A stretch of DNA of 64,000 bases from NCBI RefSeq assembly GCF_000417875.1, contig NW_006920889.1, positions 339,691 through 403,690 of the forward strand, written 5' to 3'. Below, piece after piece: positions 56,435 to 64,000 of this stretch. Positions within the stretch are counted from its first letter, which is position 1. The number at the start of each line of letters is the position of its first letter. The notes under the pieces were generated by a model. The model was not told the origin of the DNA. It did not search any database and saw nothing but the letters and a program-made list of their open reading frames with translations. The position numbers and the translations under genes are program-made. The stretch comes from Pseudozyma flocculosa PF-1 (taxonomy: Eukaryota; Basidiomycota; Ustilaginomycetes; Ustilaginales; Ustilaginaceae).

Positions 56435-56766
56435 CGAGTCTGGGTCGAGGGGGGTATTGAGGCGGGCGGCGGTGGTGGTGGTGGTGGTCGTTTGGGTGAA
56501 GGAAGTGAGCCCTGGCCCTCGCCCTCGCCTTGGCCCTCGCCCTGGTCCTTTCCCCGCGTCGAGTCCGAGGCAAGTCTAAAAAGTCGAGCTTTAGCCCTTT
56601 CCCCCCACTTCGGCTTGGAGCAGCCGCGCCCTCGTTTGCCGGCATGCAGGTGGTGGGGCAGCAGCCGCGTTGGCCGAGGCGCAAGGGCGCTCAGACCAGC
56701 TGCAGCGTGCGGCAGGCTTGTTGCGGGTGAGGGCCAGCGACAGCTGAATCGTCAACGACCCAAAGT

Positions 56767-56805
<39 letters not shown>

Positions 56806-57046
56806 GATGCATGCATATGCTGCCCAGACGAGGTCGAGGTGGAGGCCGGATACAGTCAGTCGACTGGCGTGCGTGGCAAGATGATGGGACGGTTTCGTGG
56901 TGGTGGCAACTAACCTCCCTGCCTCTCCCTTGGCCTTTCGTCGACCCGGCCTCTGCTCCTGCCACCACCACCGCCCCCCACCGCTCAGACCGCCACATAC
57001 TCCGTACGCACCCCTGCCACCGCTATCACTACGGCCACCAACCGCC
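56435..57046. other. Divergent upstream region of Zn2Cys6 and dehydrogenase genes
   Basis: About 610 bp with an AGC trinucleotide tract near 56771-56802. No gene is seen. Confidence 0.55.
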
Positions 57047-58209
57047 ATGACTTCTGCCACCGCAGCCCCCCTCGCCCACCTCGAGGCCCACTCGCTCTTC
57101 TCCGTCGACGGCCTCGTCGTCGTCATCACGGGCGGATCAGCCGGCCTCGGCCTCTACTCGGCCCACACCCTCGCACACAACGGCGCCACCGTCTACATCC
57201 TCGGCCGCGACCCAAACCGCCTCGACGACGTCGTCTCGGCCTTTCCCAAGCTCGCCTCGGGCCGCACCGGAGCACCCCGCGGCCGCATCGAGGGCGTGCA
57301 GGCAGACACAACCGACAAGCAGAGCCTCGCAGACGCCGTCGCCGCCATCCGCCAAAAGCAGCCCGCGGGCATCGACGCCCTCATCTGCAACGCCGGCATC
57401 GGCGGTCGCTTCCTCCAGTCCTACGGCACCGACAGCGTCTCGACCGACCCCTCGCGCTTCGACGACATGCTCGCCGAGCTCTCGTCGTTTTCCTTCCAAG
57501 AGGCCCAGCGCGTCCTCGACGTAAACATCCTCGGCACCTACTTTACCGCCCTCGCCTTCCTCCCGCTCCTCAAGAAGCGCGCAGACGCCTACCTCGACCA
57601 GGCTGCGGGTAACCGGGGCGCCGTCGCCTACTCGCCCCAGGTCATCCTCACCAGCTCCAACGCCGCGTGGGCAAAGACGCCCATCCTCAACCCCATCTAC
57701 AACATCTCAAAGACGGCCTGCTCCCACCTCGCAAAGATGCTCAGCACCTTGCTCGCAGAGACCAACATAAGAGGTGCGTCGGTCGATGTGCCCCGCGTGT
57801 GCGCCCATCCCCGAGGTCTGTTCGGTCCCTGACGCCGATTCCGTGCCATTGCCCTCTTTTGCTACTCCCAACTCCTTCCAGTCAACACGCTCGAGCCGGG
57901 CCTGTACCCGTCGGACCTCACATCAAACGAGGCAAAGGACCCCGTCACGGGCCACAGCACCCTCTCGCACACCAACGGCGCCGACATCCCGGCGGGCCGG
58001 TGTGGACGCCCCGCCGAGCACGGCGCCACCGTCCTCTACCTCGTCTCGCGCGCCGCCCTCTTTGCCAACGGCGCCACCCTCCGCATCGACGGCGGCGCCC
58101 TCAACAGGGTGAGTAACAGGGGGACGCGGTGCATTCCATCGCAGACAGGGCGTGGTGCTGACTGTTCGAGCATGCGACTTTCGACGTTCAGATCCCCGGC
58201 GCCGACTGA
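57047..58209 (+). CDS. Short-chain dehydrogenase/reductase
   Basis: Classical NAD(P)-dependent SDR. Exons are 57047-57773, 57882-58108 and 58192-58209 (323 residues); the last exon codes for five residues only. The cofactor motif is TGGSAGLG (residues 28-35), then CNAGI, the catalytic Ser in ILTSSNAAW, and Tyr-x3-Lys in YNISK (Tyr218, Lys222). VNTLEPGLYPSDLTS follows the first intron as the usual PG motif. Compared with typical fungal SDRs there is an insertion, KKRADAYLDQAAGNRGAVAY, before the Ser strand. The substrate cannot be inferred; the neighbouring Zn2Cys6 gene is divergent and could regulate it, which is only a guess. Confidence 0.9.
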
Positions 58210-58360
58210 GAGTGGTCCGAGCGGACGCGGGCAGGAGCATGTCGCGGTACTAGGGAATTCCACTTTGTCTTCATCATATTTGCTGGCGGCAAGGTATCTG
58301 GGCCCGACGTGGGGCGAAGAGGGGCTACATGCGGGGTGCGTGGCGAGTATGCTCGCACGC

Positions 58361-59076
58361 TCAGGCCTTGTGGACGCGGCCGGCCAGCTGGATCTCGTCC
58401 GAGGTGAGGATGACGAGCTTGCCGGGGCTGGCGGCATGGCCGCTGATGGCAGCCTTGGCCGTCTCGGCCTGCGGTCACGGGAAAAGAGGGAAGACGACGA
58501 GGGAGAGAGGGACGAGGTCAGTATGGGATGACCGTGCGATGGGGCAAGCGCCGCGCCGCCGACGCGACTCACGAGCGCCTTGACCTTGCCGTCGGCCTTG
58601 AAGTAGCGGATCTCCTCGGGGACGACGTCGAGGAGGACGACGCGCGGGTCGTCGTGGTCGCCCGTGTGCTTTCCGTCCTTCTTGTCGTCGAACCAGGCCT
58701 TGAGGCTGGAGCTCCAGTGCTTCTTGATCTTGGACTGGTCGCGGTTGATCTGGGCGCGGCCCGAGATGCTGACCCAGTCGGTCGTCTTGGGGTCGTAGTA
58801 GGACACGTTGACCTGGGGCTCGGACTGGATGTCGTCCGTCTTGCCCGAGTCGGTGTTGAAAAAGAAGCTGAACACGAGTCCCTCGGTCGTCGAGGGCGCC
58901 ATGGCGCGCGACGCCAGCTGGCCGCTGGGCGCGCGCGTCGTCAGCATGGCCGTGCCCACCTTTTTGGTGATCTCGAGCAGGCCGTCGATCTTGTCCTGCG
59001 TCGTCAGGCCCGCCGACGAGGCGTTCTTGGCGGCATTCTGCGCCGTGGGGTCGTGGGTCTGTGCGTTGGTCGACAT
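58361..59076 (-). CDS. bli-3: BLI-3-like flavin split-barrel protein
   Basis: Pyridoxamine-5'-phosphate-oxidase-like, FMN-binding split-barrel protein related to Neurospora BLI-3 (blue-light-inducible). Exons on the minus strand are 58573-59076 and 58361-58468 (203 residues). The blocks DKIDGLLEITKKVGTAMLTT, SGQLASRAMAP, NVSYYDPKTTDWVSISG and WFDDKKDGKHTGDHDDPRV are family features; the last is the usual WF.DKKDG motif. No enzymatic role is established for the fungal group; a general stress or redox role is often suggested. A TATATATA-like stretch lies about 145 bp upstream at 59218-59226. Confidence 0.88.
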
Positions 59077-60349
59077 GGCGGGCGGTGTCGAGGAAAGTTG
59101 AGAAAGGGGCGAGCGGGGCGTGGCTGGGTGGCTTGTTGTGTGGGTGGTTGATTCGACTCGGTTGACGGTGGTGGTAGTGGTGGCGTCGAGGGCGGTCAGG
59201 AGGTGGCGAGCCCCGCCGTGTATATATGGATTCTCTGGATCTGGCCGGCGCCAAGGCCAAGAGGAAGCCTACGCTGCCTGCTTGGAGGAGCGGTGCGGGC
59301 GAGAGATCGAGGGGCAGGCCCCGGTGGCCGCCTCATCCAGCTGCCGGATCGCATCATCTTCCGCCTGGCTGGCTCGTCAGGCTGCATCCCCGGGCGAGCA
59401 GCCAGGCAGGCCTGCCAGGCCAAGCAAGCAAAGGACCCTCGCTCGTTAGGCTGGGCTGGCCTGACCGCCCTCGCTCGCTCAGCCAAGATCTCCTTGGCTG
59501 CTGCTGGCCTCGACGTGGATGTGGAGGTTGTCGGTCGACGGACGTCTCTGCACCGCCACCAACCATCAAAGCCCCGCCGTCTACCCTGCCCGCGACCACG
59601 ACAACCACGCTCACATGCATGCGATCCCCATCCGCCGCCTGCTCTGTCGATCTGTAGGCGCTCGCGAGAGCACAGCCAGCTGGCGGCTCGAAGGCACCGT
59701 GCGTACCATCTCCCCGGCCTCCGGCGACCTTTCGCGGCTCGCAAAGCGCCAGCCGGGCTGGCAGGCAGGGGCAGGCGGCACCTCGCCGCCTCCGCACGCA
59801 ACGACGTGGCGGGGTGATGGCCCAAGCAAAAGCACCGTACGTACCGTGCCGCGCCTCACTCATGCAGGGTCCCGCCTGCCTGCTTCTGCGCGGCGGAAGC
59901 CTGTGACGTCAAAGTCCACCCCGAGTGACTGCAGGCCAGGTCAGGCCAGGCCAGATCGACGCCCGATGCAAAATTGCAGAAACTCGCCGCTTCATTCGGC
60001 CGTGTTTCTCGCCTGTGTGCTGGCTTTGGCAGGTCTAGCCAGCCCTGCTAGGCCTGCCTCCCAGAGCCCTCGCAACCGAGAGCCTCAGCAAGGTCGACGG
60101 GTCGCCATCGCAACGCCACCCCTCTTCCCATCCCCATTCCGATTCGACGCCGAGGAGGAGGTGGATCGGTCCGTCAGACCCATGCTGCGCCAGCTCCCGA
60201 TGGGCGATACTGGTCGCATCACTTGGCAGCACATCCTCCAGCGCCCGGCTGTGTCCGAGGCAGGCATGAGGGATCGACACGCTAGATGTTTGGACGCCCC
60301 ATCACTCGGCCTCTCGTCCACAGACATCAGCCGCTGTCTGAGGGTCGAA
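59077..60349. other. Gene-poor region before the Fanzor relic
   Basis: About 1.3 kb with the promoter of the BLI-3-like gene at its left end. Beyond about 59300 I find no supported gene; open frames shift without motifs. GGCA and GGTCA-like short repeats are frequent. It may contain further decayed transposon sequence, but I cannot show it. Confidence 0.5.
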
Positions 60350-61255
60350 GGATCGATCAGTACGGACGGCGTTGCGGCGAAAGTACGACTTACAGAACTC
60401 CTCGGGTCGAGGCACGGGCGAGATACGGCTCTTCGACGACGGAGCGGGTGATGACGACGTCGAGCCGTGAGCTGACAAGCTCGGCGAAGACGACATGGAG
60501 AACAATGTGCTCCTCGACCCGGGCGAGAAGAACCTGGTGTCGGGCATGCAGATGTTGTCGACGGCGGAGCGGCCCGCCCTTTACGACTACAGCAAGCGCC
60601 GGCGCGCCTTCGACGTGCGAACGACAAGGTACAAAGACATCCGCGGGTCTATCACGACGGAGGCGGTGCGACGAACCAAGGAGGACCTGCGTCAAGGTCG
60701 CTGCAAGACGCTCCGGCCAGGCGCCTTCGAGGACTACCTGCGGCGCTGTGGGCGTAACGGGGCAAGCATGTCGAAGGACCACGCCACGACTCTGGCACGC
60801 GGCTCCGGGCTGCCAGTGCACCGAAGGCTGCGCCTCTCGGCCTACATGCGTGATGAGCTTGCCGGTAAGGTGCTCACCGACGATCTCTAGGATCGGTTCG
60901 GCAGGGACGTCAAGGTCCTCATCGAAAACTGGGCCGACGGGCCGGGCCGTGCGCCATCAAGGTCAAAGGGGCTGCGTCGAGGCCTCTGGCACAACGCCAT
61001 ACCCGTGCACCTCCTAGACGAGTGGGGCAACGTCGAAGCGCTGTCCAACCTGTATCCATAGGAGCCTGACGGCGTGTCCGCCCGGATCCCCGCGACCTGG
61101 CGAGGATGGTCGGCGTGTGGCCAATCCAGCAGTGCAGTCAATGCACTGTCCGCCCCTCGCCGACCAGGATAAAGCCGCGACGTTGGCAGCGCGACATTAC
61201 CGCGCTCCTGGACATGCGCACGATCTTGCTGGCATCGGCACGACGCCAGCCGTGA
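60350..61255 (+). pseudogene. Decayed Fanzor (eukaryotic TnpB-like RuvC nuclease)
   Basis: Fanzor proteins are RNA-guided DNA nucleases of eukaryotic mobile elements, related to bacterial TnpB and Cas12. Pieces appear in the correct order but in different frames. SISTDGVAAKVRLTE (from 60353) fits the block upstream of RuvC-I. NNVLLDPGEKNLVSG (60498-60542) is RuvC-I with its Asp, followed by the Fanzor-like YDYSKRRRAFDVRTTRYKDI. RRLRLSAYMRDEL and, after an in-frame stop at 60888-60890, RFGRDVKVLIENWADG (RuvC-II Glu) and GLRRGLWHNAIPVHLLDEWG follow. After a stop at 61059-61061 and a frameshift, IQQCSQCTV (half zinc finger) and WQRDITALLDM (RuvC-III Asp) lie in frame from 61115 to the stop at 61253. 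All three RuvC blocks survive, but the gene is broken. I saw no guide-RNA or transposon end. Confidence 0.8.
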
Positions 61256-61906
61256 CCGGAGCATCTCAGGAGGCTCTGCCAGGGCCGACGCCGACGCCGA
61301 CGTAGACGTGGCGCACACGCACCTTGAAGCGACCAATCGCGCGTCATGTCAAGATAACGCGAGTCCCCTGCAAGCTCCTGCCAGCGTTCAGCGGGACGAG
61401 GCGCTCAATCGCCGTCTGTTCCGCCTTTCTCTCATCTCGCAGGAACGGCAAGGGGTCGTAGCGCGGCGGTCGCGCGTTGTCTGTGCGCGGGCCCTGCATT
61501 GATGGAAGTCTCTGTGAGGGCAGCGCAGATCGGCATATGGCCTCGAGCTTCATGACCCGAATGCGAAGCTTCCGAATGGTCCGGGAGCGTTGATGGTCGG
61601 ATCTGAGCAGTGATGGACCCGAGGATTGGCGGGAGCATCGAGGATCGATCAGATGACGAGTGGCCGTCTGCAGCGAGCAGGAGCGTTCCAAAGACTACGA
61701 TAGACCGATGGGCTGTTGTGCAAGCACGGCAAGGGCGATGGTGGCCGGAGGCGAGTCCGGTCGTGGAAGCGCTGGCTTCGGGAGAAACGGGGGCTCGCTG
61801 CTCCACACGGACAGGTCATGAGCGGGCGCTGGCCACTTCGAGCATGACAGCGCCTGTCAATCCACCCTGGTCAACGTATTCGCCCTGACTTTCGTCGGCC
61901 ATTGGC
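61256..61906. other. Intergenic right of the Fanzor relic
   Basis: About 650 bp without a supported gene. It may include remnants of the element that carried the nuclease; no terminal inverted repeat was found by eye. Confidence 0.45.
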
Positions 61907-61916
61907 AAAAGCAAAA
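61907..61916 (-). terminator. RNA polymerase III terminator of tRNA-Glu
   Basis: Two TTTT runs on the minus strand within 15 bases downstream of the tRNA-Glu 3' end. Confidence 0.65.
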
Positions 61917-61921
61917 GCTTA

Positions 61922-62031
61922 CTCCCGGCCGGGGAATCGAACCCCGGTCTCAGCAGAACATCGTCGCCTCCTCCTCGGGGAGCGTTGACTGGGATGAAAG
62001 TGCCGTATCTTGACCACTAGACGAGCTGGGA
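61922..62031 (-). tRNA. tRNA-Glu(TTC) with a long intron
   Basis: The reverse strand folds as a tRNA. The acceptor is TCCCAGC paired with GCCGGGA plus a G discriminator, with one A-C mismatch at the fifth pair. The D arm region TCGTCTAGTGGTCAAGA is typical of Glu. The anticodon stem is CGGCA/TGCTG with loop CTTTCA, giving anticodon TTC. The T arm is CGGGGTTCGATTCCCCG. About 38 nt after position 37 (roughly 61957-61994) are an intron at the canonical place. The intron and the acceptor mismatch leave a small doubt about function. Confidence 0.85.
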
Positions 62032-62064
62032 CGGGCTGCGTGAAGAAAACGTACCGCATCGCGG

Positions 62065-62071
62065 TATATAT
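62065..62071 (-). promoter_or_regulatory. TATA-like element upstream of tRNA-Glu
   Basis: TATATAT lies 34-40 bp upstream of the mature tRNA 5' end, at nearly the same distance as the element upstream of tRNA-Leu. Confidence 0.5.
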
Positions 62072-63366
62072 GCAGATTTCGGCGGTGTCGCCAGTGCGTT
62101 TGAGACTTTGCAAGGCGCTCTCCGATCGAGCCGATGGAGAAGCAAGGGCCCTAGACGTTGGTGCCAAGCCCTTGCAACGACGGTCCTTGGCTTTGTTGCT
62201 GAGGGCGCTGATCCTCTCCGACGACGACGACGGCGGCGGCAAAGGGACCGACCGTCCGCCCGACCGAGCTTCCGTGTTCCGACTTGACCTGCCTGGCGTC
62301 GGGGGGGAGGGCCTTTGTAATCGCCGCGCGCGTGGGCTGGAATTTCCGTCTGCCTCTGTTCGGCCTGCCACAGGTAAGGGCGGGGCGGCGGTGCGGCGGG
62401 GCACTCTCGCTTGAATTTTTTTCTTCGTTCTGTTTTTCTTCTTCGGCCGCCCGCGCGCCATTTTGGCCGGATTCTAGGTGGCGGCCAGCAGCGACGACGG
62501 CGGCGTGCTGAGCTGCAAGAAGTGGGTCTGTGTGTGACGAGCGTGGCGTGGCATGGCCAGGGCGGCGGCGTATCACAGACAGGTAGAGAGCAAGCGCAAA
62601 GCGGCGTGCAAACGGGGCGTCGCGGCGAGCAGGGGGGCGAACGGGCGGCAAAAGAAGGAGGCCCGGCCAGGCGAGGGGGGGCCTGCTTGGATCGTCGTGT
62701 GCGCCCGCCTGTGGCCGCATTTTGGCAGGGCGGCCGGCAGGGCAGGGCAGGGCAGGGCAGGGCCAGCCTTGGGCTGGGCGGGTTTGGCTGGCTGGCTGAA
62801 TTTGGCTGGGCTGGCTGGCTGGCTGACCGACCGACCGACCGTCCGTCTGTCCGTCATCGCTACGCCCTCTCCTTCCGCCTCCATCGCTGTCCCTTTCCCC
62901 CCTTCCCTTTCCACAAACCTCTGACCCACTCCGAGGTTGTTTTCCATCGCAACCTCTTCCTTCCCCTCCCTCGTTCTATTCTGCTTCCTTCGACCCTTCG
63001 ACCGAAGACAGACACCGAGAGCCAGAGAGCAAGGTCCAATCGCCTTCTTTCTCGCCCGCCCGCCCGACCGACTCCGACAGCCTCGCAGGTTTTCGTCGAG
63101 CTACCGTCCGTTTCCGCGCACCAGAGGCTTCAGCCGACGCTTGGCCGGACTGACGACTTTCTTTGCGTCCCGACACGAACTTTGAAACGACCCCTGCTGC
63201 CGGCTCCGTTTCGCTAGGTTCGATCGCGCCGCCCGCCACCCGCCTTTGCTCGACGCTGCCGCTGCCGCTGCCGCCACCTCTGCCCTCCTCCGCGATCCGC
63301 CACCCGCCCACGATTTCCCAGCCGAGCGGCGTAGATGCTGCTGAGGTGAACATCGCAACCCCGCCG
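62072..63366. other. Upstream region and probable leader of the eIF4G-like gene
   Basis: About 1.3 kb with no supported gene. It contains a GGCAG pentanucleotide repeat (62736-62760), GGCT and GACC short repeats around 62790-62840, and strongly C/T-rich DNA from about 62850 that looks like promoter plus a long leader. Confidence 0.5.
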
Positions 63367-64000
63367 ATGTCGACAGAATCAAATCCAGCGGGCAGCATTC
63401 AGAACGCCAGCGCTGGTAGTGTCAATGGGGATGCCGCCTCCCACTCCCGCCGCCAGTCGGCCGTGAGCCTGCCCAAGGGCGCCAACAGCGGCTCCCGTGC
63501 CGGTGAGTGCCGAGTCTGCCGCCATGGCAAGCGCATCCCGACGTCGTCGCCGCCACCGTCGACTGACAATGCCATCCTCTTGCCCTCCTCTTGCCATCCT
63601 CTTGCCATCCTCTGGCTCTGCAATTGTCCCGCTCTGGCTTCGTCCATACCCCCGTCCTCTGACGACAGGCCAAGCCATCAACTTTGGCTCGGTCCACGAC
63701 CAGAACGCCATGCTCTCGTCTTCGCCTGCGGTGCAGCCCAGCTCTGGGCAGCATCTCGGTGGCGAGAAGCCGACCGTGTTCGGCTCGGTGACTGCGCACG
63801 ACTCCGAGTCCAAGAAGACGACCATCGGCTTCGCCAGCGGCAAGGGCGATGGCGCTGCCGGCCCCGCTGCCGCAACGGGAGCGGCTCCGCGTAGCCTCGA
63901 CTTCCAGAAGCTCTTCCAGGGCTCGGGCTCGCCTGCGCAGCCGGCGGGCAACGCCGCTGCCGGTACGGGATCCGGCTCGCCGCAGGCGCAGGCCGCCTCT
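63367..64000 (+). CDS. Probable translation initiation factor eIF4G, N-terminal part (3' partial)
   Basis: The gene runs off the window. Exons seen are 63367-63502 and 63669 onward, joined in frame at a GTGAGT donor and CAG acceptor. The 150 residues available are low complexity and Ser/Ala/Gly-rich. The pieces AINFGSVHDQNAMLSSSPAV, KPTVFGSVTAHDSESKK and SLDFQKLFQG resemble the disordered N-terminus of fungal eIF4G, where short INFGSV-like and LDFQ-like motifs recur. The MIF4G domain that would settle it lies outside the window. The long C/T-rich upstream region suits a highly expressed translation gene. Confidence 0.5.

What the first reader, a model, noticed from the sequence alone, without database searches (positions are those of the whole stretch)
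60350..61255. Relic of a Fanzor RNA-guided nuclease in a basidiomycete genome
Three RuvC-type blocks occur in order (LDPGEKN, IENWADG, QRDITALLDM), along with the Fanzor-like RRRAFDVRTTRYKDI region and a CSQC half finger. They are interrupted by two stop codons and at least two frame changes. Fanzors are eukaryotic relatives of TnpB that use a guide RNA encoded next to the gene. A recognisable but broken copy implies that an active element once moved in this lineage, and intact relatives may exist elsewhere in the genome.
Basis: partly seen in the sequence, partly recalled or inferred. Interest (0 to 1): 0.92.

Follow-up and report, generated by a model that had tools for sequence, protein, structure and literature searches.

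The report
Dead Fanzor1 nuclease gene in fungus
The stretch is the broken remains of a gene for Fanzor1, a known eukaryotic RNA-guided DNA-cutting enzyme related to TnpB and CRISPR-Cas12; it can no longer make the enzyme, so it is a fossil of a known kind rather than a new system.

Summary
A profile of 66 fungal Fanzor1 proteins hits four frame pieces of the 64-kb window, all here and in profile order; the pieces from 60342 on, read together, score 102.6 bits, against -1.6 for a Fanzor2/TnpB profile. Solved Fanzor1s match at 1.6e-12 (Parasitella) and 1.4e-5 (Spizellomyces). A frame-tolerant alignment scores 152; 100 shuffles reach 49 at most, 138 other tiles 50.

Corrections: the missing first zinc half-finger (TSKRCPTC, 61030-61053) is present in a third frame; a WED piece with the Fanzor1 TDG motif lies upstream (60215-60388, weak alone, E 0.025); the likely catalytic glutamate is in LLDEW (61020-61022), not IENWADG. 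One clear in-frame stop and three frame changes break it; no REC part, element ends or guide-RNA gene was found.

Six protein queries found five more Fanzor1 fragments and no intact Fanzor1 in the genome, but there is one uninterrupted 847-codon Fanzor2, with no serine recombinase (PF00239) detected. The window copy is best read as a fossil. "Basidiomycete" was not tested. A new, dead member of a known kind.

The parts
60215..60388 (+). Relic of the WED domain with the Fanzor1 TDG motif (TDG at 60362-60370), frame 2
   Evidence: Fanzor1 profile positions 288-345, E 0.025 in the window scan (weak alone), first in order; TDG present in 58 of 66 profile proteins; TDG-to-DPG distance about 51 codons, family median 54, range 17-97 in the 65 of 120 proteins that have both motifs
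60471..60887 (+). RuvC-I part, frame 0, with DPG motif (D codon 60516-60518) and the helices that follow
   Evidence: Fanzor1 profile 383-465, E 8.5e-13; Parasitella Fanzor1 alignment starts at 60507
60888..60890 (+). In-frame TAG stop inside a gap-free conserved stretch
60891..61025 (+). RuvC-II region, frame 0: IENWADG ... KGLRRGL ... LLDEW; likely Ealt glutamate at 61020-61022
   Evidence: Fanzor1 profile 615-660, E 7.6e-5; DE or NE at the Ealt place in 73 of 79 proteins where the pattern matched, of 120 examined
61027..61077 (+).
   Evidence: Improves the PDB match to Fanzor1 from 4e-9 to 1.6e-12; frame-tolerant alignment
61070..61252 (+). Second zinc half finger CSQC (61133-61144) and RuvC-III RD (61190-61195), frame 2; stop TGA follows at 61253-61255
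   Evidence: Fanzor1 profile 705-734, E 0.0098

Best explanation
The stretch 60215-61252 is a 5'-truncated or 5'-decayed pseudogene of a Fanzor1 protein of the fungal kind typified by Parasitella parasitica Fanzor1. The ancestor, by established knowledge of Fanzor1, was a nuclease loaded with a guide RNA encoded at the 3' end of its mobile element, which cut DNA matching the guide next to a short TAM. This copy has three frame changes, an in-frame stop in a conserved helix and no detectable REC part, so it has no frame from which the nuclease could be made. Shown: homology to Fanzor1, order of domains, conserved motifs, lesions, no second copy found at DNA level. Inferred: past mobility, the guide RNA, present lack of function.
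For: Colinear Fanzor1-profile hits of four frame pieces; the reading from 60342 on (without the WED piece, with the frame-1 piece) scores 102.6 bits against -1.6 bits for a profile of 43 Fanzor2/TnpB proteins. PDB phmmer 1.6e-12 to Parasitella Fanzor1 and 1.4e-5 to Spizellomyces Fanzor1. Frame-tolerant score 152, best of 100 shuffles 49 and of 138 tiles 50. The published motif D-X(125,275)-[TS][TS]XX-C4-X(5,50)-RD (PMC3627910, passages) is met when the three frames are read in turn: about 170 residues, TSKRCPTC, CSQC, 15 residues, RD. DPG, TDG and Ealt motifs present. No second copy at DNA level. Five other degraded Fanzor1 loci in the genome.
Against: Pfam-A has no match over its cut-off: PF07282 15.6 bits, cut-off 26.3; but genuine Parasitella Fanzor1 scores only 13.9. 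Single-protein searches of the genome, frame by frame, rank the window weakly with some queries: Spizellomyces fragment E 0.11, P0064 E 0.01. No REC part found in 56500-60500. No terminal repeats or guide-RNA gene were found. The homologue search with the first X-padded reading found nothing at E<=10. Some frame changes could be assembly errors, though open frames up to 1659 codons exist in the window.
Confidence: 0.95

Rival explanations
1. A living Fanzor1 gene with introns or assembly errors, misread as broken.
For: Fungal genes have introns, and single-base errors can fake frame changes; parts of the frame are open for 139 and 56 codons.
Against: The TAG at 60888 and the frame change near 61026 lie in a stretch that aligns to Parasitella Fanzor1 without room for an intron. 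The TDG-DPG spacing is about that of the family, leaving no room for one there either. Open frames of 593-1659 codons exist in the same window, so frames are generally intact, though in GC-rich DNA long frames also arise by chance. No REC part upstream.
Confidence: 0.04
2. A Fanzor2 or prokaryotic TnpB relic rather than Fanzor1.
For: The TNB zinc ribbon and RuvC are shared by all; the genome also has Fanzor2 genes.
Against: Fanzor2/TnpB profile -1.6 bits against 102.6 for Fanzor1; the six-frame window scan with that profile gave nothing in 60000-61300. The TDG motif is a Fanzor1 feature (PMC10711439, passages).
Confidence: 0.01
3. Chance resemblance assembled from short frames in a GC-rich sequence.
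Against: Controls by shuffles, other tiles and reversed window; the first piece alone reaches E 8.5e-13.
Confidence: 0.001

Closest known systems
Parasitella parasitica Fanzor1 (PpFz1, PDB 9cf0; protein P0044) and mucoromycete relatives
   Same: RuvC-I DPG, KGLRR block, displaced glutamate in the L(I/L)DE block, C4 zinc ribbon, RD; order and spacing
   Different: About 26% identical (62 of 237 aligned). The window copy lacks the stretch between profile positions 465 and 573, which probably corresponds to the PpFz1 RuvC insertion (FRI; PMC11423790, passages); it has no detected REC and is broken
Coemansia spiralis hypothetical protein H4R19_001746 (P0132)
   Same: Highest identity of the 21 proteins compared (21 picked from the 120 listed): 79 of 241, 33%
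   Different: A 751-residue protein listed as such in the database; Coemansia is a zoopagomycete (recalled)
Spizellomyces punctatus Fanzor1 (SpuFz1, PDB 8gkh)
   Same: RuvC-II to RuvC-III alignment, E 1.4e-5
   Different: About 25% identical (33 of 133); SpuFz1 is an active multi-copy element with inverted repeats (PMC10432273, passages)
Fanzor2 of the same genome (C1:950664-953204, L003:5165-7705)
   Same: Same superfamily, same RuvC/TNB logic
   Different: Different clade; uninterrupted; the window relic does not match its profile and it does not match the Fanzor1 profile (-2.1 bits)

Membership tests
Fanzor1 | RuvC-I DPG motif | tested here: met
   LDPG, D codon 60516-60518
Fanzor1 | Displaced RuvC glutamate (Ealt) before the zinc ribbon | tested here: met
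   LLDEW, E codon 61020-61022; DE or NE in 73 of 79 proteins where the pattern matched, of 120 examined; Ealt from PMC10711439 passages
Fanzor1 | [TS][TS]XX-C4 zinc finger-X(5,50)-RD, 125-275 residues after the D | tested here: met
   Met across three frames; not met in any single frame
Fanzor1 | TDG motif in the WED domain | tested here: met
   STDGVAAKV at 60359-60385, frame 2; weak on its own, E 0.025, supported by order and spacing
Fanzor1 | REC domain with Fanzor1 insertions | tested here: inconclusive
   No hit in 56500-60500 with a 778-position profile; lost or decayed. REC pieces exist at two other loci of the genome
Fanzor1 | Scores as Fanzor1, not Fanzor2 | tested here: met
   102.6 versus -1.6 bits
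Fanzor1 | Lies in a transposon with ends and target duplication | tested here: inconclusive
   No convincing inverted repeats flank it in 58200-63200; no second copy found, so flanks cannot be compared
Fanzor1 | Guide (omega) RNA encoded at the 3' side | not testable with these tools
   No sister copy to compare; Rfam shows only a tRNA in 58000-64000
Fanzor1 | RNA-guided DNA cleavage | not testable with these tools
   Needs experiment; the copy has no intact frame
Fanzor2 / TnpB | Matches the Fanzor2/TnpB profile, or PF07282 over cut-off | tested here: not met
   -1.6 bits; PF07282 15.6 bits, below the 26.3 cut-off

The most novel reading that the evidence does not exclude
The genome has let its Fanzor1s decay while keeping one uninterrupted, catalytically complete-looking Fanzor2 with an extra N-terminal region of about 340 residues and with no serine recombinase detectable in the genome. 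It could be a Fanzor2 taken over by the fungus as an RNA-guided nuclease, perhaps one that acted on the Fanzor1 elements now seen as fragments.
Probability: 0.1. Interest if true: 0.7.

Novelty: new member of a known kind. Interest (0 to 1): 0.3.

Why it matters
It adds a small GC-rich genome with at least six decayed Fanzor1 loci and two Fanzor2 loci to the record of where these nucleases have been. My search of the held library found no paper holding both 'Fanzor' and 'Basidiomycota' (subscription papers are mostly not held), so if the host is a basidiomycete the record there may be thin. The practical value is the pairing of dead Fanzor1s with one uninterrupted orphan Fanzor2, which makes the question of whether eukaryotes domesticate Fanzors testable in one organism.

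Tried and rejected
Pfam on single frame pieces: nothing useful. Phage collection by DNA: nothing. Homologue search with the X-padded relic: 5576 candidates, none at E<=10; the same database searched with the Parasitella fragment gave 284 proteins, 120 listed. Element ends by repeats: only short imperfect pairs. Guide RNA: not testable for a single copy. Hits dropped before counting the fragments: C5:645075-645218 (E 0.026), which looked like chance GC-rich similarity; C5:742425 (E 0.023), whose locus gave no profile hit better than E 3.3; C21:459256 (E 1.15). The C22 fragment, kept because of two profile hits (4.7e-6 and 7.6e-6), had no Fanzor match among solved structures. The tnp2 transposase as carrier of Fanzor1: one locus fuses the two (C2:971k), but around three other tnp2 loci (L025, L026, L027) the Fanzor1 fragment queries gave no match better than E 0.5 apart from the tnp2 piece itself (the output was cut, apparently within the Fanzor2 query's rows), so it is not claimed. 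Tree placement: long branches, support for window+C2 only 0.66; not used; C22 was left out of that tree. Structure prediction was not run: sequence evidence was decisive, and the genome's Fanzor2 protein is not among the inputs that tool lists as allowed.

Full report
What was checked. To test them without choosing frames by eye, I collected fungal Fanzor1 proteins by searching with a fragment of Parasitella parasitica Fanzor1 (284 proteins at E<=0.01, 120 listed). I built a 778-position profile from the 66 of those 120 that are at least 480 residues long. I then scanned all 1204 six-frame pieces (25 residues or more) of the 64-kb window. The only four pieces hit at E<=10 are adjoining and in profile order: 59465-60448 (matched 60215-60388, profile 288-345, E 0.025), 60471-60887 (383-465, E 8.5e-13), 60891-61058 (615-660, E 7.6e-5), 61070-61252 (705-734, E 0.0098). 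The reversed window gave one hit, E 9.8. The pieces from 60342 on, read together with X at breaks, score 102.6 bits with Fanzor1 and -1.6 bits with a profile made from the 43 Fanzor2/TnpB proteins.

Independent support. Against solved structures the joined reading matches Parasitella Fanzor1 at 1.6e-12 and Spizellomyces Fanzor1 at 1.4e-5. An alignment that allows frame changes scores 152 with the Parasitella fragment (100 dinucleotide shuffles: mean 33, sd 3.7, maximum 49; 138 other tiles of the window, both strands: maximum 50). With the Spizellomyces fragment it scores 90 (shuffles maximum 57, tiles maximum 51). Pfam's PF07282 reaches only 15.6 bits, but the real Parasitella protein reaches only 13.9, so that miss is not evidence against. 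Weaker results: whole-genome searches, which match frame by frame, gave the window E 0.11 with the Spizellomyces fragment and 0.01 with P0064, but 4.5e-9 with the Parasitella fragment and 1.6e-8 with P0132.

Anatomy and corrections. In order: a WED piece with the Fanzor1 TDG motif in frame 2 (TDG occurs in 58 of the 66 profile proteins; the spacing to DPG is about 51 codons, median 54 in the 65 of 120 proteins that have both motifs). Next DPG of RuvC-I in frame 0, and a TAG stop at 60888. Then the RuvC-II block, whose IENW glutamate sits where 89 of 94 matched family members have glycine (120 examined). The glutamate expected to be catalytic is the displaced one in LLDEW, as described for Fanzors (PMC10711439, passages seen). 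Then the first zinc half finger TSKRCPTC in frame 1, and CSQC plus RD in frame 2, followed by a stop at 61253. Read across frames, this meets the published Fanzor/TnpB motif (PMC3627910, passages). Frame changes fall between 60388 and 60507, near 61026, and between 61053 and 61131. The TGA at 60468 may lie upstream of the entry into frame 0. No REC part was found in 56500-60500.

Surroundings. On the 5' side lies a pyridoxamine-oxidase-like gene on the minus strand (within 58036-59265, PF16242); on the 3' side a tRNA gene at 61922-62031, minus strand. G+C of the relic (64.2%) is that of the window (64.4%). No second copy was found at the DNA level and no recognisable ends.

The rest of the genome (23.05 Mb, 33 contigs). 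Six Fanzor1 protein queries led to five more Fanzor1 fragments, each of which reaches the profile at E 1e-5 or better within the loci scanned: C2:971k (E 1e-17), C13:848.0k (5e-14), C14:242.0k (9.5e-11), C22:406.3-407.0k (4.7e-6 for a + strand piece and 7.6e-6 for a - strand piece), and C13:539.3k (1.1e-18). None is near full length. Counts from this genome are lower bounds (tool's note). One uninterrupted Fanzor2: C1, L003:5165-7705, 847 codons from its first Met. It matches TnpB-like protein L79 (PDB 9b0l; a mimivirus protein, recalled) at 8.8e-26, PF07282 at 60.3 bits and the Fanzor2/TnpB profile at about 346 bits. It keeps DPG, DES-YTT-CSQC and the RD aspartate (sequence). A second Fanzor2 fragment is at C12:650.0k. 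PF00239 serine recombinases, the partner of IS607-type Fanzor2s, gave no match at E<=1 in six frames without regard to introns; the control genomes rang in 10 of 14. The nearest homologue of this Fanzor2 with an organism name in the listing is from Tilletia indica (P0002).

Mechanism. By established knowledge, Fanzor1 is an omega-RNA-guided DNA endonuclease carried by diverse DNA transposons (PMC10432273, PMC11423790, PMC10711439, PMC3627910; passages only). That the ancestor of this copy worked so is inference from homology. This copy itself lacks an unbroken frame, so no activity is expected. What it tells is history: several Fanzor1s came in and decayed.

Novelty. [quoted passage not shown] Partial Fanzor genes are also known, in Spizellomyces (same paper, passages). 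The finding is a new, dead member of a known kind. The search of the held library for Fanzor with Basidiomycota found no paper, and the three Fanzor papers heading the list do not hold 'basidiomycete'; subscription papers are mostly not held. The host's phylum was not tested here.

Noticed in passing
L003:5165-7705 (G000:C1:950664-953204): Uninterrupted 847-codon Fanzor2 ORF with the RuvC/TNB motifs and about 340 extra N-terminal residues; no second copy of its 3' flank, no serine recombinase found in the genome.
   Followed up: partly
L013:4515-5087 (-), G000:C12 near 650.0 kb: Fanzor2 fragment (RuvC-I region) in one frame with a zinc-finger-like stretch (by eye); the 9.9-kb locus has 51% G+C against 64% in the window.
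   Followed up: partly
L009:4305-5177 (G000:C2:970804-971676): One 291-codon open frame joins a tnp2-like transposase piece (80% identical over 70 residues to a PF02992-bearing frame at C33) directly to a Fanzor1 piece.
   Followed up: partly
L010:4339-5025 (C22) and L045:4389-5101 (C13): At both loci Fanzor1 pieces lie close together on opposite strands, as if rearranged by inversion.
   Followed up: no
L025 (C13:401.7k), L026 (C2:531.3k), L027 (C33:19.9k): tnp2-type transposase frames of 1046, 1042 and 641 codons; PF02992 was tested and found for the first and third.
   Followed up: no
window 61922-62031 (-): tRNA gene, 41.4 bits in Rfam; at 110 nt it probably carries an intron; ARAGORN with the bacterial code did not report it.
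   Followed up: no
L010:5758-5929 (C22) and L045:5248-5378 (C13): Tandem repeats beside Fanzor1 fragments: 15.6 copies of an 11-base unit and 6.0 copies of a 22-base unit.
   Followed up: partly
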